Source of the DNA: Paludibacteraceae bacterium
GTDB lineage: Bacteria; Bacteroidota; Bacteroidia; Bacteroidales; Paludibacteraceae
Direction of reading: 5' to 3'
DNA: 48,158 bases
Assembly: GCA_905235225.1 (NCBI GenBank)
Contig: CAJOKE010000027.1
Span: 1 to 48,158 of the forward strand
Of this stretch, positions 3,300-43,792 are shown piece after piece. The notes below the pieces were generated by a model. The model was not told where the DNA came from. It ran no database searches and worked only from the letters and a program-made list of their open reading frames with translations. Position 1 is the first letter of the stretch, and every line of letters starts with the position of its first letter. The position numbers and the translations under genes are program-made.

Positions 3300-3506
3300 T
3301 AATTTGTTTTGTTTTAGACCAGGCCGACAGACATCTTTACGACTTACGGAATAAATTTGAATTCCAAATTAGGAGTTCCATTGTGCCGACTAATGTCGGT
3401 TTTACCGAAAATCCACTGCCCAGCCCGGCGTATTAATAATTAGTTATTGTTACGGGCAAAAGCCCTATTTAATATCTTCTTTCAGGGCGAACCCCAAAAA
3501 AGCGTG
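3300..3506 (-). promoter_or_regulatory. Long structured leader upstream of rplM
   Basis: About 200 bases separate the promoter from the rplM start. Visible inverted repeats include GGGC/GCCC at 3454-3457 and 3462-3465 (AAAA loop) and CCGA/TCGG at 3386-3389 and 3396-3399. Long structured leaders before ribosomal operons often carry autoregulatory sites for one of the encoded proteins. That role here is inferred from position and structure alone. Confidence 0.4.
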
Positions 3507-3538
3507 CAAAAGTACTACTTTTTTTTCGACTATGCAAA
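3507..3538 (-). promoter_or_regulatory. Promoter of the ribosomal operon
   Basis: On the minus strand this is TTTG (3538-3535), a 20-base spacer, then TACTTTTG (3514-3507). It fits the Bacteroidetes -33/-7 consensus exactly. Confidence 0.75.
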
Positions 3539-3576
3539 TATTTCTTGCATTTTTTAGTATTTTTTTACATTTCCGT

Positions 3577-17676: not shown

Positions 17677-18885
17677 TTAGTTGTTGAAATCAGTATTGAA
17701 CCATGCCAATCCCTTGACTGTCAAAGTGTATTTTTGTCTTGGATGGTGCGGGCTATCAGGATAGAGCATTCGCACAAAACCTAAGTTCATAGCAGGATTG
17801 AGCGAGTATTCGACGAAGTTCATTCTATCCTTCAACCCGACAGCAGTCATCATTTGTTTGAGCGACATTTTATCGTGTCCGATAGCCAGAAGCAAGCGTT
17901 TGACATTATCGTTATCAATGTCCATCGGTTTTTTTTCTACTGTTTCCGCGGAACTTGCGGGGGTGGTTATCGGGGTAGTTGCGGGGGAAGTTGAAGGGGA
18001 AGTTGCGGGGGTAGTTGCGGGGGTAGTTGAAGGGGTAGTTGAAGGGGAGTGCCAGTCCAAGTGCATTTCTCTGTTTCGGAGAACATTATTTTCCCCCAAA
18101 AGCAGGTTTCGGAAGAATCGTTCAATAAACGCAGTATCATAACTTATACCATCAACGACACTAATGTAGTTAGCGCGTACAAGTGCATTTCGGAAATACC
18201 ACGAATGTTCAGCAAACATATCATTAGTGACCACAAATCCAAGGGTACGCAAGTATTTAATCATGAATACAGCAGTAGTTCTTGTATTTCCCTCTCCAAA
18301 GGGATGAATTTGCCAGATATTGCTACAGAAGCGCGCCAGATGATTCACAGCCTCGGACAAGTCAACTTTGGAATAGTCAAATTCCTTTTCCTGCGAGAAA
18401 TCGTACTGCAACGTATCGCGAATCATATCAGCCCCGGCATAGAAGATGGTTTCGCCACGCAATATCCATTCTTTTTTTGTAATATTATAGTCGCGTATTT
18501 TACCGGCAAACTTAAAGATACCATAGAAGAGGTATTTATGAATAGCAATCAGTTGTGCAGGATTAAATGAAAATGTTTTTTCAGAGAGGAGTTCTGCAAT
18601 CCGCTGTGAAACGATGTCCGCTTCCTGTTTGTCATCATAGTCAAGGCTGTTACGGTTTTGTTCAGTTTTATAATATGTTTCGATGAGCAGTTTAGCTTTT
18701 TTAAGCGTTATATCCCCTTCAATATGCTGCCGAGCCAAATCCTTGAGGTAGTCGGACGTTTGCAGTCCGTCCACCTGTTGGAGTCCAATAGCGGTGCGCC
18801 AGATGAGGGCGCGTTCCTTCTGTTCGGGTTCGCCCTGTCGGATATATTCCTCGAAGTCAGGCTGATATGGCGGTATTTCGTTCAC
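17677..18885 (-). CDS. Fic family protein (predicted AMP/NMP-transferase) with Thr/Pro-rich linker
   Basis: Fic proteins attach AMP or related groups to target proteins. The catalytic motif IHPFGEGNTRTT (about residues 195-206) keeps the His, the Gly-Asn core and the Arg. The N-terminal region (DFEEYIRQGEPEQKERALIW, then GLQQVDGLQTSDYL) is the usual Bacteroidetes Fic leader domain. Residues about 280-312 are a Thr/Ser/Pro tandem repeat linking to a C-terminal winged-helix-like domain (about 325-402). I chose GTG at 18885. The frame extends to an ATG at 18942, but that crosses the promoter. With this start the mRNA is nearly leaderless. No obvious antitoxin gene is adjacent, so it may be a regulatory Fic and not a toxin. 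It heads a three-gene run with tnaA. Confidence 0.85.
   Translation of the reverse strand: MNEIPPYQPDFEEYIRQGEPEQKERALIWRTAIGLQQVDGLQTSDYLKDLARQHIEGDITLKKAKLLIETYYKTEQNRNSLDYDDKQEADIVSQRIAELLSEKTFSFNPAQLIAIHKYLFYGIFKFAGKIRDYNITKKEWILRGETIFYAGADMIRDTLQYDFSQEKEFDYSKVDLSEAVNHLARFCSNIWQIHPFGEGNTRTTAVFMIKYLRTLGFVVTNDMFAEHSWYFRNALVRANYISVVDGISYDTAFIERFFRNLLLGENNVLRNREMHLDWHSPSTTPSTTPATTPATSPSTSPATTPITTPASSAETVEKKPMDIDNDNVKRLLLAIGHDKMSLKQMMTAVGLKDRMNFVEYSLNPAMNLGFVRMLYPDSPHHPRQKYTLTVKGLAWFNTDFNN
17953..18048 (-). repeat. 12-bp tandem repeat inside fic encoding a Thr/Ser/Pro linker
   Basis: About eight imperfect 12-base units of GGGTAGTTGCGG type (plus strand) encode four-residue units such as TPAT, TPST and SPAT. 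All units keep frame. The repeat lies between the Fic domain and the C-terminal domain. Confidence 0.8.
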
Positions 18886-19434: not shown

Positions 19435-19446
19435 TATTGTCCGTTT

Positions 19447-19534
19447 CATGTCAGGTGTATGTCAGGTATCTGTCAGGTTCAGGAACTGATCAGCAACTGA
19501 TCAGGTACTGATTAGGAACTGATTAGCAACTGAT
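19447..19534. repeat. 11-bp tandem repeat, eight units
   Basis: Eight consecutive 11-base units fall into two families: NATGTCAGGTN-like (three units) and NAGNAACTGAT-like (five units, for example CAGGAACTGAT, CAGCAACTGAT, TAGCAACTGAT). The 11-base spacing is kept without a slip for 88 bases. The array lies between the 126-residue protein and nadD. Confidence 0.85.
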
Positions 19535-19606
19535 GTAGAGAGTCGGAAGGGAGTCGGAAAAAGGATATGAGAACGAGGGCATAAGAACGTGGATATTAAG
19601 ATAGAA

Positions 19607-19648
19607 ATATGAGGATAAAAATACGAGGATAAAAATATGAGGATCGGG
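19607..19648 (+). repeat. 14-bp tandem repeat containing the nadD start codon
   Basis: Three 14-base units follow each other: ATATGAGGATAAAA, ATACGAGGATAAAA and ATATGAGGATCGGG. The last contains the nadD ATG at 19637 and its second and third codons. The first unit carries an out-of-frame copy of the same ATGAGGAT start. Confidence 0.8.
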
Positions 19649-20470
19649 ATATACGGAGGGTCGTTCAATCCAGTGCATTACGGGCATAAGGGATTAGTGA
19701 AATGGGTGTTGGAGCATACCGATTTGGATGAGGTATGGATGTTAGTGAGTCCAAAGAACCCGCTGAAGGCAGCGGGAAAGAGAACAGGGGGAGTGACAGA
19801 CGCGGCAGCGGACATGGCAGCAGAGGGAGTGACAGACGCGGCAGCGGGCATGGCAGCGGGGGGAGTGACAGACGCGGCAGCAGGTATGGCAGCTGGCGGA
19901 GCGACGGACGCGGCAGCGGGCATGGCAGCGGGCATGGCAGCAGGTATGGCAGCAGGCGGAGTGATGGGCGCGGCAGCGGGCATGGCAGCGGGTGGAGACA
20001 AGAGCGGGAATATGGGGGAAAACAAAGATGGAGAGAAGGGGGATAGATATAATTTGGACACGAATTATGGGGAACGGTTAGCCGCAGCACGAGAGGCGAT
20101 GAAGGATGTGCGGCATGCGGTGGTGAGCGACTTCGAGCGGAATCTGCCCATACCGAGTTATACGGCGAATACGCTGCGGGAACTAAGCAAGAAATATCCC
20201 GAGCATTCGTTCACGCTGATAATCGGAGAAGACAACCGAGAAGTGTTTGACCGCTGGCGCGAATGGGAGTACATATTGGAGAACTACCGCGTGATGGTTT
20301 ATCCGCGGCGGAAAGCGAACGAGCGGAGCGAGGGAGAAATGCGGAGCGAGGGAGAGATGCGGAGCGAGGAGAAAAAGGATGAGTTGTTCGGGAAGATGGT
20401 GTATTTGAGTGATGCGCCGATGTTTGACATCTCGAGTACGGAAATACGGGAATCGGGATGTCGGGAATAA
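19637..20470 (+). CDS. nadD: Nicotinate-nucleotide adenylyltransferase with repeat insertions and altered C-terminus
   Basis: NadD joins nicotinate mononucleotide and ATP to form deamido-NAD. The nucleotidyltransferase signature IYGGSFNPVHYGH (residues 5-17), VSPKNPLK (37-44), the SDFERNLPIPSYTANTL segment, TLIIGEDN and the ISSTEIR motif near the end are all present. The protein is 277 residues instead of about 190-200. About 80 residues of Ala/Gly/Met repeats are inserted after NPLK (residues 52-119), and a second repeat (SEGEMR units) follows YPRR. The C-terminus stops eight residues after the start of IRESGCRE, about 20 residues short of the family, inside a 27-bp tandem duplication. All inserts keep the frame, so the gene may still work, but activity is uncertain. 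Confidence 0.88.
   Translation: MRIGIYGGSFNPVHYGHKGLVKWVLEHTDLDEVWMLVSPKNPLKAAGKRTGGVTDAAADMAAEGVTDAAAGMAAGGVTDAAAGMAAGGATDAAAGMAAGMAAGMAAGGVMGAAAGMAAGGDKSGNMGENKDGEKGDRYNLDTNYGERLAAAREAMKDVRHAVVSDFERNLPIPSYTANTLRELSKKYPEHSFTLIIGEDNREVFDRWREWEYILENYRVMVYPRRKANERSEGEMRSEGEMRSEEKKDELFGKMVYLSDAPMFDISSTEIRESGCRE
19790..19993 (+). repeat. 36-bp in-frame minisatellite inside nadD
   Basis: The unit encodes GVTDAAAGMAAG-like 12-mers. Four full 12-residue units and one 20-residue expanded unit cover residues 52-119. Because the unit is a multiple of three and has no stops, the other plus-strand frame and two minus-strand frames are also open here. Those frames are shadows. Confidence 0.9.
20324..20377 (+). 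repeat. 18-bp in-frame tandem repeat inside nadD
   Basis: Three 18-base units starting CGGAGCGAG encode RSEGEM, RSEGEM and RSEEKK. They are inserted between the YPRR and ELFGKMVYLSDAP segments of nadD. Confidence 0.85.
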
Positions 20471-20495
20471 ATACGGGAATCGGGATGCCGGGAAT
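20442..20495 (+). repeat. 27-bp tandem duplication across the nadD stop codon
   Basis: Two 27-base copies (20442-20468 and 20469-20495) differ at one base. In the nadD frame the first ends with TAA and the second with TAG. The duplication replaces the family's usual C-terminal region. Confidence 0.85.
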
Positions 20496-20524
20496 AGCAA
20501 ATAATTAACCAAAATATGTTAGAT

Positions 20525-40740: not shown

Positions 40741-40817
40741 TAAGCTTTGGGGGACTTGTGCTTGACTTATGGGCCACCTTTGGGCGACCTTTGGGCGACC
40801 TTTGGGCGACCTTTGGG
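40741..40817. repeat. 11-bp tandem repeat, seven units
   Basis: CGACCTTTGGG occurs three times in a row, preceded by CCACCTTTGGG and by three more diverged 11-base units (TGACTTATGGG, GGACTTGTGCT, TAAGCTTTGGG). The 11-base spacing never slips. Confidence 0.85.
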
Positions 40818-40857
40818 AAGAAGTCGGAAAGAGAGGGGGTGTTTTTGATTATTTTTT

Positions 40858-41077
40858 CGTACTGACGGGATGGCGTACTGACGTACTGATTTTTCGGGAT
40901 GACGGGAGGATGATTATTTTTCGTACTGACGTACTGACGGGATGACGTACTGATTTTTCGGGCTAGCGGGATAGTGATTATTTTTCGTACTGACGTACTG
41001 ACGGGATGACGTACTGATTTTTCGGGATGGCGGGAGGACGGACTGATTTTTCGGGATGGCGGGAGGATGAAGTTTTT
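40858..41077. repeat. 64-bp tandem array, three units and a partial fourth
   Basis: Copies begin at 40858, 40922 and 40986, exactly 64 bases apart. Each starts with CGTACTGA units, contains CTGATTTTTCGGG and ends with a T run. Within each copy, the 8-mer CGTACTGA recurs two or three times. A partial copy (from about 41039) ends just before the valS promoter. Confidence 0.88.
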
Positions 41078-41170: not shown

Positions 41171-43792
41171 ATGGAGTCAAAGTACAACCCGACTGAAATA
41201 GAAACCAAATGGTATCAGTATTGGTTAAACAACAAGTTCTTTCACAGTACGGTGAACGAAGCAGAGCCGTACACCGTCGTTATTCCGCCACCCAATGTAA
41301 CCGGCGTGTTACACATGGGACATGTTCTCAACGAGACTATTCAGGACGTTCTTGTCCGCCGCGCGCGATTGGAAGGCAAAAACGCATGCTGGGTTCCCGG
41401 CACAGATCATGCGTCTATCGCCACGGAAGCCAAAGTAATCAAACGCCTCAAAGAACAGGGCATCAACAAAAGTGACCTGACTCGCGAAGAGTTTCTCAAA
41501 CACGCATGGGATTGGACAGACGAACACGGCGGAATAATCCTCAAACAACTACGCAAACTCGGCTGCTCCTGCGACTGGGACCGTACTGCGTTCACAATGG
41601 ACGAAACACGCAGCAAAGCCGTCATCAAAGTGTTCTGCGACCTGTACAATAAAGGCCTGATCTACCGCGGACTGCGTATGGTCAACTGGGATCCCGAACG
41701 CCAGACCGCCCTTTCGGACGAAGAGGTTATTTACCACGACGAACACTCAAAGTTCTATTATTTACGCTATGCCGTAGTCGAAAACCCCGGCAAATACGCC
41801 ATCGTTGCCACCACGCGACCCGAAACAATTTTCGGCGATATTGCAGTGTGCATCAATCCCAAAGAGGAGAAAAACCAATGGCTCAAAGGCAAACATGTGG
41901 TCGTTCCAGGCGTCGGTCGTGTTATCCCGATTATCGAAGACCGCTATGTCGAAATCGGCTTCGGTACCGGATGCCTCAAAGTCACTCCGGCACATGATGC
42001 CAACGACTATATGCTCGGGCAAAAGCACAACCTTCGCACCATAGATATCCTCACCGCCGACGCACGGTTGAATATGGACACAATGGAAGATGAACTCCAA
42101 GACAATGTCCGCAAATATCACAGGATGGACAGATTCGAATGCCGCAAGCAGATCGTGGAAGATTTGCAGGCTCTCGGATTGGTGGAGAAAGTGGAAGATT
42201 ATGACAACAAAGTCGGTTACAGCGAGCGGACTAATGTCCCTATCGAACCGCGACTCAGCCTCCAATGGTTCATCCGCATGCAGCACTTCGCTCATATCGC
42301 ATTGACGCCTGTAATGAATGACGACATAGAGTTCTACCCCGCCAAATACAAAAACACCTACCGCAACTGGCTGGAAAACATCAAAGACTGGTGCATCAGC
42401 CGACAACTATGGTGGGGACACCGCATTCCTGCTTATTACAATGCAGAATTATTAAAGGAAACAGGGCTGGAGAACTATCCGGCTGACAAAATCATTGTCT
42501 CCGAAACAGCCCCGGAAGGCAATTATGTCCAAGACGAAGGCGCACTGGACACTTGGTTCAGTTCCTGGCTCTGGCCAATCAGCCTCTTCGACGGCATTGA
42601 ACATCCTGACAACAAAGAGATTCAATACTATTATCCGACTGCCGACCTCGTAACAGGACCCGACATAATCTTCTTCTGGGTGGCACGAATGATTATGGCA
42701 GGCTATGAGTACATGGGCAAAATGCCGTTCAAACATGTCTATTTCACCGGCATTGTCCGTGACAAATTAGGCCGTAAAATGTCAAAGTCCTTAGGCAACA
42801 GCCCCGATCCGCTCGACTTGATTGAACGATACGGTGCAGACGGCGTACGAATGGGCATATTGCTCAGCGCACCTGCCGGAAACGATATACTATACGATGA
42901 TGTCCTGTGCGAGCAGGGCCGTAATTTCTGCAACAAGATTTGGAACTGCTTCCGAATGGTAAAAGGGCTTGAGGTACAGGATTTCGCACAACCCGAAACC
43001 AATAAGACTGCAACCGAATGGTTTACCGACAAACTGCAGGAACAAAGTGCCGAAGTCGCGGATTTGCTGCACAAATACCGTCTGAGCGAAGCACTGATGG
43101 CGGTTTACAAACTCTATACCGATCAGTTCTCCGGCTGGTATCTCGAGATGATCAAACCGGCTTACCAACAGCCTATTGACCGCACCACTTATGAGCAGAC
43201 ACTAAGTTTCTTTGACCAACTGCTCCGACTGCTGCACCCGTTCATGCCGTTCATCACCGAGGAATTATGGCAGAACCTTGAGGAACGCCGCCCCGGCGAG
43301 TCGATCATGACTTCGCGCCTTGGCTCCTCAAGCGAAACGTATGACAAAGCCATTCTTGAAACGATAGACGAAGTCAAAGAGATTGTTGCAGGTGTACGCA
43401 ATGTTCGTGCATCAAAGAACATTGCGCAGAAAGAGAAACTGACGCTCCTGTCCCCAAAAAGTCTGGACGCACTCGTCGGGAAACTTGCCAACTGCCAAAT
43501 CGCTGATGCCGCCACGGCACCGCAGAACGCACAACTGTCCACCTTCATCGTCGGCACTACCGAATACAGCATTGTGTTGGACGGCTTTGTGAATACGGAA
43601 GAAGAACTGCGGAAATTGGAAGCAGAACTGCAACACCAACAGGGCTTCTTGCGCGGAGTAATGGCAAAATTAGGCAACGAACGTTTTGTTCAGAACGCAA
43701 AACCCGAAGTCGTAGCTTTGGAGCGTAAAAAGAAGGCTGACGCAGAACAGCGTATTGCAGCATTGCAGGCTGCCATCGCTGCCCTCAAATAA
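41171..43792 (+). CDS. valS: Valyl-tRNA synthetase
   Basis: ValS charges tRNA-Val. The class I signatures are clear: [13 protein letters not shown] (HIGH-type motif, residues 48-51) and [14 protein letters not shown] (KMSKS, about residue 537). The editing domain (CP1) lies between them, including [10 protein letters not shown] (about 215). The anticodon-binding domain and a coiled-coil C-terminus (about 800-873, [18 protein letters not shown]) complete it. The 873-residue length is normal. It has its own promoter after the repeat arrays and is followed by the DAHP synthase gene at an 18-base gap. Confidence 0.97.

What the first reader, a model, noticed from the sequence alone, without database searches (positions are those of the whole stretch)
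19607..20495. nadD is expanded by several independent tandem repeats, inside and at both ends
One essential-pathway gene carries a 14-bp repeat around its start codon, a 36-bp repeat adding about 68 residues after NPLK, an 18-bp repeat after YPRR, and a 27-bp duplication that supplies the stop codon and replaces the family's C-terminal end. Every internal insert keeps the frame and the catalytic motifs (GGSFNPVHYGH, ISSTEIR) are intact. The inserts fall in positions that look like loops. This could be a phase-variable or adaptively variable enzyme, or a gene decaying while NAD is made another way.
Basis: partly seen in the sequence, partly recalled or inferred. Interest (0 to 1): 0.82.

Follow-up and report, generated by a model that had tools for sequence, protein, structure and literature searches.

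The report
Repeat-swollen loops in essential NadD enzyme
In an uncultured Bacteroidales bacterium, the only detected gene for a key NAD-making enzyme carries tandem DNA repeats in two loops, which are together about 100 amino acids longer than is typical in its genus, without breaking the frame; the repeats likely grew by local copying slips and are probably tolerated rather than useful, and relatives carry different repeats in one of the same loops.

Summary
The repeats are real. nadD (19637-20470, 277 aa) has a 14-bp array at its start, a 208-bp array (36-bp units) after NPLK (site A), an 18-bp array after YPRR (site B) and a 27-bp duplication at its stop. It is the only nadD found in an 83%-complete genome; frame and motifs are intact, and NadC and NadE are present, so decay is unlikely.

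In 110 same-genus nadD genes (Paludibacteraceae), site B carries an array in 41, against 0.8 in shuffles and 0 of 30 in sister genera. Some species with identical cores have different site B inserts. In relatives tested, such inserts belong to repeats scattered through the genome; in one, 31 of 32 copies examined lie inside reading frames, among them RadA, DXS and RNase R. The window's own nadD inserts have no second copy found, so they likely grew by local slippage. Its site A is the longest of 110. The short C-terminus is shared by all 107 unfused genes examined. Internal units are multiples of three, so unit changes should not switch the gene off.

Best reading: tolerated minisatellite growth in a repeat-prone genus, akin to but distinct from Rickettsia palindromic elements. 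Strain variation and activity are untested.

The parts
19637..20470 (+). nadD, nicotinate-nucleotide adenylyltransferase, 277 aa, only copy found in the genome
19438..19557 (.). intergenic region with 11-bp arrays (19448-19478, 19479-19534); a member of a dispersed family of this genome
   Evidence: TRF; eight further matches on six contigs, best 120 bp at 93%; DNA fold z -3.86 for 19445-19560
19600..19644 (+). 14-bp array, 3.2 copies, whose last full copy holds the start codon
19609..19632 (+). 7-codon upstream reading frame (MRIKIRG*) made by the 14-bp copies, ending 4 bases before the nadD start; any role is untested
19655..19687 (+). GGSFNPVHYGH motif, intact
   Evidence: mostly invariant columns
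19769..20143 (+). site A: 125 residues between NPLK and LPIPSYTA (genus median 33)
19785..19992 (+). site A tandem array: 36-bp units with 12-bp subrepeats and 60-bp higher-order copies; no other significant match in the genome
20323..20374 (+). site B tandem array, 18-bp units, 2.9 copies, in the loop after YPRR; no other significant match in the genome
20429..20449 (+). ISSTEIR motif, intact
20442..20496 (+). 27-bp duplication over the last codons and stop; the stop spans the copy junction, and the second copy alone would also read a stop in the same register

Best explanation
This is a nadD, the only one found in its genome, whose loops after NPLK and after YPRR hold in-frame tandem DNA arrays that likely grew by local replication slippage and are probably tolerated because they lie in predicted flexible loops of an enzyme that would still work. 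Shown: the arrays, the lack of a second copy of them in the genome at hand, the intact frame and motifs, the presence of NadC and NadE, and a genus-wide habit of repeat arrays at site B and next to the start codon. Shown in the relatives tested: site B inserts there belong to short repeat families dispersed through the genome, many copies of which sit in frame inside conserved genes, and the insert differs between some species whose NadD cores are identical. Inferred: slippage as the mechanism (12-bp subunits inside 36-bp units inside a 60-bp higher-order copy; the 9-mer GGCAGCGGG already stands at the NPLK edge); that selection on frame and core removes most insertions other than frame-keeping loop insertions; that the enzyme is active.
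For: Site B arrays in 41 of 110 genus genes against 0.8 in shuffles; upstream 60 bp 14 against 0.6; site A 2 against 0.3; the three core segments 1, 0 and 0. 0 of 30 sister-genus genes have a site B array. Site B is 25.8% tandem repeat, against 1.0% in interiors of flanking ORFs and 7.2% outside ORFs. 110 of 110 genes keep both motifs in one open frame. In a 387-kb sample of this genome, periods divisible by 3: 34 of 59 arrays in ORFs against 4 of 45 between genes, Fisher p 1.6e-7; in ORFs of 200 aa or more 25 of 35. Window inserts without a second significant match in the genome. Tandem arrays 186-307 per Mb in samples of three genus genomes against 67-75 in samples of two sister genera; dispersed short repeats 127-272 against 4-38 per Mb. 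Identical cores (129 of 129 columns) with different site B (L013 and L027: 36% identity). GGCAGCGGG at 19768 next to NPLK and six more times in the array.
Against: No strain or read data, so slippage was not seen happening. The MAG is 82.75% complete, so copies of the array could lie in missing sequence. Differences between the 36-bp units are fewer at the protein level than expected (5 of 12 changed codons nonsynonymous, 70% expected, p 0.038, small n), which hints at some constraint on the insert. The period-mod-3 effect is not general in the genus: inside ORFs of 200 aa or more it is 16 of 19 in G000 but 13 of 37 in G125 and 13 of 25 in G146. Some close pairs keep the same site B (L100/L114, L106/L107). 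Genus genes are not independent, and the 109 genomes were the better-matching ones, so counts overstate events and may not hold for the rest. Activity is not tested.
Confidence: 0.7

Rival explanations
1. The inserts are copies of a mobile, protein-invading repeat element (Rickettsia-palindromic-element-like) that landed in nadD.
For: In relatives this fits: the site B insert of G125 has 47 matches in that genome, nadD's own included (40 of 89 candidates scored), 32 in G105, 30 in G022; the heptamer insert of G146 has 19 matches, its own included. The 11-bp region upstream of the window's nadD is dispersed.
Against: The window's own site A, site B and 27-bp sequences have no other significant match in its genome, and the two site A stretches and site B fold as DNA with z -1.84, -1.10 and +1.34 only.
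Confidence: 0.1
2. A contingency locus: unit number changes tune NadD length or translation, adaptively.
For: Arrays in loops and around the start codon; recurrence of arrays near the start codon in the genus; a 7-codon upstream frame created by the 14-bp copies.
Against: Internal periods are multiples of three, so no on/off switching; unit copies have diverged (88% matches for the 36-bp array), which would damp slippage; no polymorphism could be looked for.
Confidence: 0.08
3. The site A insert is a selected new flexible arm with a function (regulation, condensate formation, partner binding).
For: Fewer nonsynonymous unit differences than expected (p 0.038); the three genes of this clade all have an enlarged NPLK-to-LPxPSYTA stretch (125, 80, 57).
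Against: Read by eye the three stretches share no insert sequence, and part of the 80 and 57 comes from a second insertion nearer to VVSDFE that the window lacks. The array is also open in four of the other five frames, so openness proves little.
Confidence: 0.1
4. Assembly artefact of a metagenome-type assembly.
For: 82 contigs, 82.75% complete; tandem repeats are prone to misassembly.
Against: Array copies differ from one another; the frame is kept through the arrays; 40 other genus genes show arrays at site B.
Confidence: 0.04
5. A decaying gene, NAD being made another way.
For: TIGR00482 score is only just above the cut-off (119.9 against 112.45), and below it when the two pieces are scored apart (79.2 and 41.1). 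NadR and PnuC were not searched.
Against: Only nadD found, NadC and NadE present, PncB not found; no stop or frameshift; motifs kept.
Confidence: 0.03

Closest known systems
Rickettsia palindromic elements (RPE) inside conserved genes, e.g. gmk (Ogata et al., Abergel et al., as told in PMC2229807 and PMC3767692, passages read)
   Same: Short repeat DNA lies in frame inside conserved enzyme genes; insertion spots are shared by orthologues; the RPE-bearing guanylate kinase is reported as translated and active, with changed substrate affinity. The relatives' site B elements match this pattern: dispersed and intragenic.
   Different: RPEs are 105-146 bp with long stem-loops and dispersed copies. 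The window's inserts are tandem arrays with no second copy found, and not strongly palindromic. Relatives' elements are built of 7-bp or 16-bp units of differing sequence. Host is a Bacteroidales genus, not Rickettsiales.
Heptamer direct repeats next to start codons (TAACTGA in Beggiatoaceae, Cyanobacteria and five Bacteroidetes; PMC4679880, abstract and sections 12 and 15 read)
   Same: Short tandem repeats just upstream of start codons, as in several genus nadD genes (7- and 14-bp units). That paper also reports some repeats within reading frames, mostly at protein ends, one of them near the end of purC in a Bacteroidetes species.
   Different: The window's unit is 14 bp of another sequence; in this genus the repeats also sit in mid-protein loops.
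Intragenic VNTRs / contingency loci (recalled; PMC3899988 seen in a search listing only)
   Same: Tandem repeats inside a coding region with units of 3n bases.
   Different: Known cases are mostly surface proteins (recalled); here it is a cofactor enzyme, and variation between strains could not be looked for.
Canonical bacterial NadD (TIGR00482; B. subtilis 1kaq)
   Different: Two enlarged loops, and no segment after about residue 166 of the B. subtilis chain; a short tail of 2-22 aa is found in all 107 unfused genus genes examined against 27-36 aa in 27 of 30 sister-genus genes.

Membership tests
NadD (TIGR00482) | Family model over the curated cut-off | tested here: met
   119.9 bits against 112.45 for the whole protein; the two pieces scored apart fall below it, 79.2 and 41.1
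NadD (TIGR00482) | GGSFNPVHxGH and ISSTxIR motifs | tested here: met
NadD (TIGR00482) | NadD-type nucleotidyltransferase fold | tested here: met
NadD (TIGR00482) | Catalysis of NaMN + ATP to NaAD | not testable with these tools
   needs an assay
Rickettsia-palindromic-element-like insert (window nadD) | Copies dispersed in the genome | tested here: not met
   (genome 82.75% complete)
Rickettsia-palindromic-element-like insert (window nadD) | In frame inside a conserved gene | tested here: met
Rickettsia-palindromic-element-like insert (window nadD) | Long stem-loop | tested here: not met
   DNA fold z -1.84, -1.10, +1.34
Rickettsia-palindromic-element-like insert (window nadD) | Sequence similarity to described RPE families | not tested
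   no RPE sequence was fetched
Contingency locus / VNTR | Unit number differs between strains | not testable with these tools
   best listed relative about 63% over residues 136-277
Contingency locus / VNTR | Unit changes switch the frame (on/off type) | tested here: not met
   internal periods 36, 60, 72, 12, 18

The most novel reading that the evidence does not exclude
In this Bacteroidales genus, loops of essential enzymes, above all the NadD loop after YPR, are standing entry and growth sites for short repeat DNA: dispersed heptamer and mini-hairpin repeats invade conserved genes in frame on a scale at least like that first described in Rickettsia (19 frames there; 21 reading frames in 20 sampled regions of one genome here), are swapped between sister species with identical enzyme cores, and in the window's species have grown into a 92-residue arm beside the NadD active site.
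Probability: 0.4. Interest if true: 0.78.

Novelty: new variant of a known kind. Interest (0 to 1): 0.6.

Why it matters
It shows the gene of a key metabolic enzyme taking up large, fast-changing, repeat-encoded loops while its core stays fixed. I found no report of this for this genus in nine literature searches of one open-access library; scattered in-gene heptamer repeats in other Bacteroidetes are in print (PMC4679880). The genus offers dozens of natural variants of the same enzyme with different loop inserts, so the old question of how proteins tolerate or exploit selfish or slippage-born DNA becomes directly testable. It also warns that family models can under-score such genes: here TIGR00482 finds NadD as two stretches, only just over the cut-off together and under it apart.

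Tried and rejected
Dispersed-element origin for the window's own inserts was tested and dropped. The idea that the 27-bp duplication shortened the protein was dropped. Codon-position test of the 36-bp units: five units, 12 changed codons, 5 nonsynonymous against 70% expected, p 0.038; too small to carry weight. DNA fold test of arrays: only the intergenic 11-bp region stands out, z -3.86; the G125 element does not (z -0.36), so 'mini-hairpin' describes its GCGNAGC units and is not a demonstrated structure. A gmk neighbour search by one motif found none in 110 loci; the pattern may be too strict. A first parse of sister-genus NadD caught only 13 of 30 and was redone for lengths (27 of 30) and for TRF (30 of 30). 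A first landmark pattern missed 37 of 110 genus genes and was loosened (none missing). Intergenic 'dispersed repeats' of the window's genome are inflated by what look like Bacteroidota promoters (recalled motif). An earlier count said 32 of 34 element copies in ORFs; a recount gives 31 of 32. Literature searches for Colicola or Paludibacteraceae with repeats, for nadD repeats and for Bacteroidales in-frame repeats gave no relevant paper in the listings. The second structure job and the third protein search were not used.

Full report
1. The observation. TRF and the raw sequence confirm four repeat features in and around nadD: 14 bp at 19600-19644, 36 bp at 19785-19929 with a 60-bp overlap to 19992, 18 bp at 20323-20374, and a 27-bp duplication at 20442-20496. 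The ORF 19637-20470 is NadD by TIGR00482 (119.9 bits, cut-off 112.45). It is the only NadD match in its genome, a 2.24-Mb, 82-contig, 82.75%-complete assembly.

2. What relatives show. In one search, 140 of 151 same-genus genomes have a NadD match (11 do not, all under 90% complete). I extracted the gene from 110 loci: the window's, 29 loci, and 80 fetched. They come from 109 of the 140 genomes (G029 gave two); they are the better matches, and the other 31 genomes were not examined. The genus includes Candidatus Colicola coprequi: contig G081:C119 has 8774 bases, the length of JAGHSR010000067.1 of that organism, found with the same query, and NCBI places it in Paludibacteraceae. All 110 genes have both NadD motifs in one open frame.

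3. Where the repeats sit. With TRF score 40 or more: site B (after YPR) has an array in 41 of 110 genes (shuffles 0.8), the 60 bp upstream in 14 (0.6), site A in 2 (0.3), the three conserved core segments in 1, 0 and 0. Unit lengths are mostly 7 bp, also 9, 11, 16 and 18 (score 30 or more). Of 30 sister-genus genes none has a site B array; one has an upstream heptamer array and one a weak array in the core. The site B fraction in tandem repeats (25.8%) exceeds that of non-ORF DNA around it (7.2%) and of flanking ORF interiors (1.0%). These counts are not corrected for shared descent.

4. The window against its genus. The NPLK-to-LPxPSYTA stretch (site A) is 125 aa, the longest of 110 (median 33; L003 80, L002 57); site B is 30 aa (rank 18, ties counted; median 19); the tail is 6 aa (median 6). 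On a tree of core columns (137 columns, few for 113 rows) the window groups with L002 and L003 (99/95), the two genes with the next-longest site A. Read by eye their inserts are not alike, and part of theirs is a second insertion nearer to VVSDFE. Sister genera have site A 31-33 aa and tails of 27-36 aa in 27 of 30 genes. So the short C-terminus is shared by the genus genes examined, and the large site A belongs to this small clade.

5. Turnover. Among 29 pairs with at least 95.5% core identity, site B identity ranges from 0.29 to 1.0; L013 and L027 have identical cores (129 of 129) and 36% site B identity. Several pairs do keep the same loop (for example L100/L114 and L106/L107, 100%), so change is frequent but not constant.

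6. Where relatives' inserts come from. The G125 site B sequence has 47 matches in G125, nadD's own included (40 of 89 candidates scored), 32 in G105, 30 in G022, 24 in G113, 5 in G076, 2 in G052, 1 in G021, 0 in G146. G022's own nadD carries another insert, with the palindrome CCTCCCGACAAACGGGAGG. Its pattern is found 1-3 times in 10 of 20 genomes: in five only at nadD, in one at nadD and two other places, in four only elsewhere (places compared), so it is shared but low-copy. The G146 heptamer insert has 19 matches in G146, its own included. In 20 regions chosen from the G125 hits, 31 of 32 copies lie in ORFs of 100 aa or more, 21 ORFs in all. Ten of these 21 ORFs were scanned: seven match named families at E 1e-20 or better (glutamate synthase type, DXS, BglX type, aminoacyl-histidine dipeptidase, GldA-like ATPase, RNase R, RadA; BglX, GldA and the contig-cut RNase R below their cut-offs), three do not. 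These regions were picked by match strength, and about 84% of the sampled G125 DNA is in ORFs of 200 aa or more, so this shows tolerance of insertion in genes, not preference. In a wider sample, dispersed short repeats inside ORFs of 200 aa or more number 27 of 75 in G125, 18 of 104 in G146, 4 of 49 in the window's genome, and 0 of 7 in two sister-genus genomes.

7. The window's own arrays. Site A, site B and the 27-bp unit have no other significant match in G000. The 11-bp-unit region just upstream has eight further matches on six contigs. The 36-bp unit contains 12-bp subunits and a 60-bp higher-order copy, and the 9-mer GGCAGCGGG stands already at the NPLK edge. This is what local slippage would leave; it is inference.

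8. Frame. In the 387-kb sample of this genome, array periods divisible by three are 34 of 59 in ORFs and 4 of 45 between genes (Fisher p 1.6e-7). In other genus genomes this is weaker inside ORFs of 200 aa or more (G125 13 of 37, G146 13 of 25, G000 16 of 19): there 7-bp units keep frame only by total length. For the window's nadD, changes by whole units would keep the frame.

10. Literature. RPEs in Rickettsia are in-frame repeats in conserved genes (19 reading frames in the first report), and the RPE-bearing guanylate kinase is reported as translated and active with changed affinity (PMC2229807, passages; PMC3767692, passages). Heptamer repeats at start codons are known (PMC4679880, abstract and sections 12 and 15), with some intragenic cases, mostly at protein ends. 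I found no report for this genus in nine searches.

11. Verdict. A real and unusual gene, best explained as tolerated minisatellite growth in loops of a probably working NadD, within a genus in which short repeats are found in coding loops of several species. The genus-wide pattern is more interesting than the single gene.

Noticed in passing
L268-L287 (G125 loci): A dispersed repeat with 16-bp units (GGTCTGTCAGCGAAGCGG and kin) lies inside conserved reading frames: 31 of 32 copies in the 20 regions taken.
   Followed up: partly
L125, L129, L116: NadD fused at its short C-terminus to another protein: a Mur-ligase-type (FolC-like) enzyme in L125 and, by its sequence, L129; a haemolysin-III-related membrane protein in L116 (L129 not scanned).
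   Followed up: partly
nadD loci of the genus (110 examined): Absence of the roughly 28-residue C-terminal segment of NadD found in sister genera.
   Followed up: partly
window 40770-41067: A dense block of 11-, 8-, 64- and 29-bp tandem repeats just upstream of a class I tRNA synthetase gene at 41171.
   Followed up: no
window 17955-18047: 12/24/36-bp array coding a Thr/Pro-rich linker (TTPATTPATSPS) in a Fic-family protein.
   Followed up: no
window 3490-3564: One of many similar intergenic sequences (GCAGTACCTTTGCA-like core) that look like strong Bacteroidota promoters (motif recalled).
   Followed up: partly
L029, L065 (G146, G145): Heptamer repeats (GAAATCA kin) of nadD site B have 19 and 17 matches in these genomes, nadD's own included.
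   Followed up: partly
L022 and L130 (G029): G029 carries two nadD genes of different kinds; its 7% contamination may explain this.
   Followed up: no
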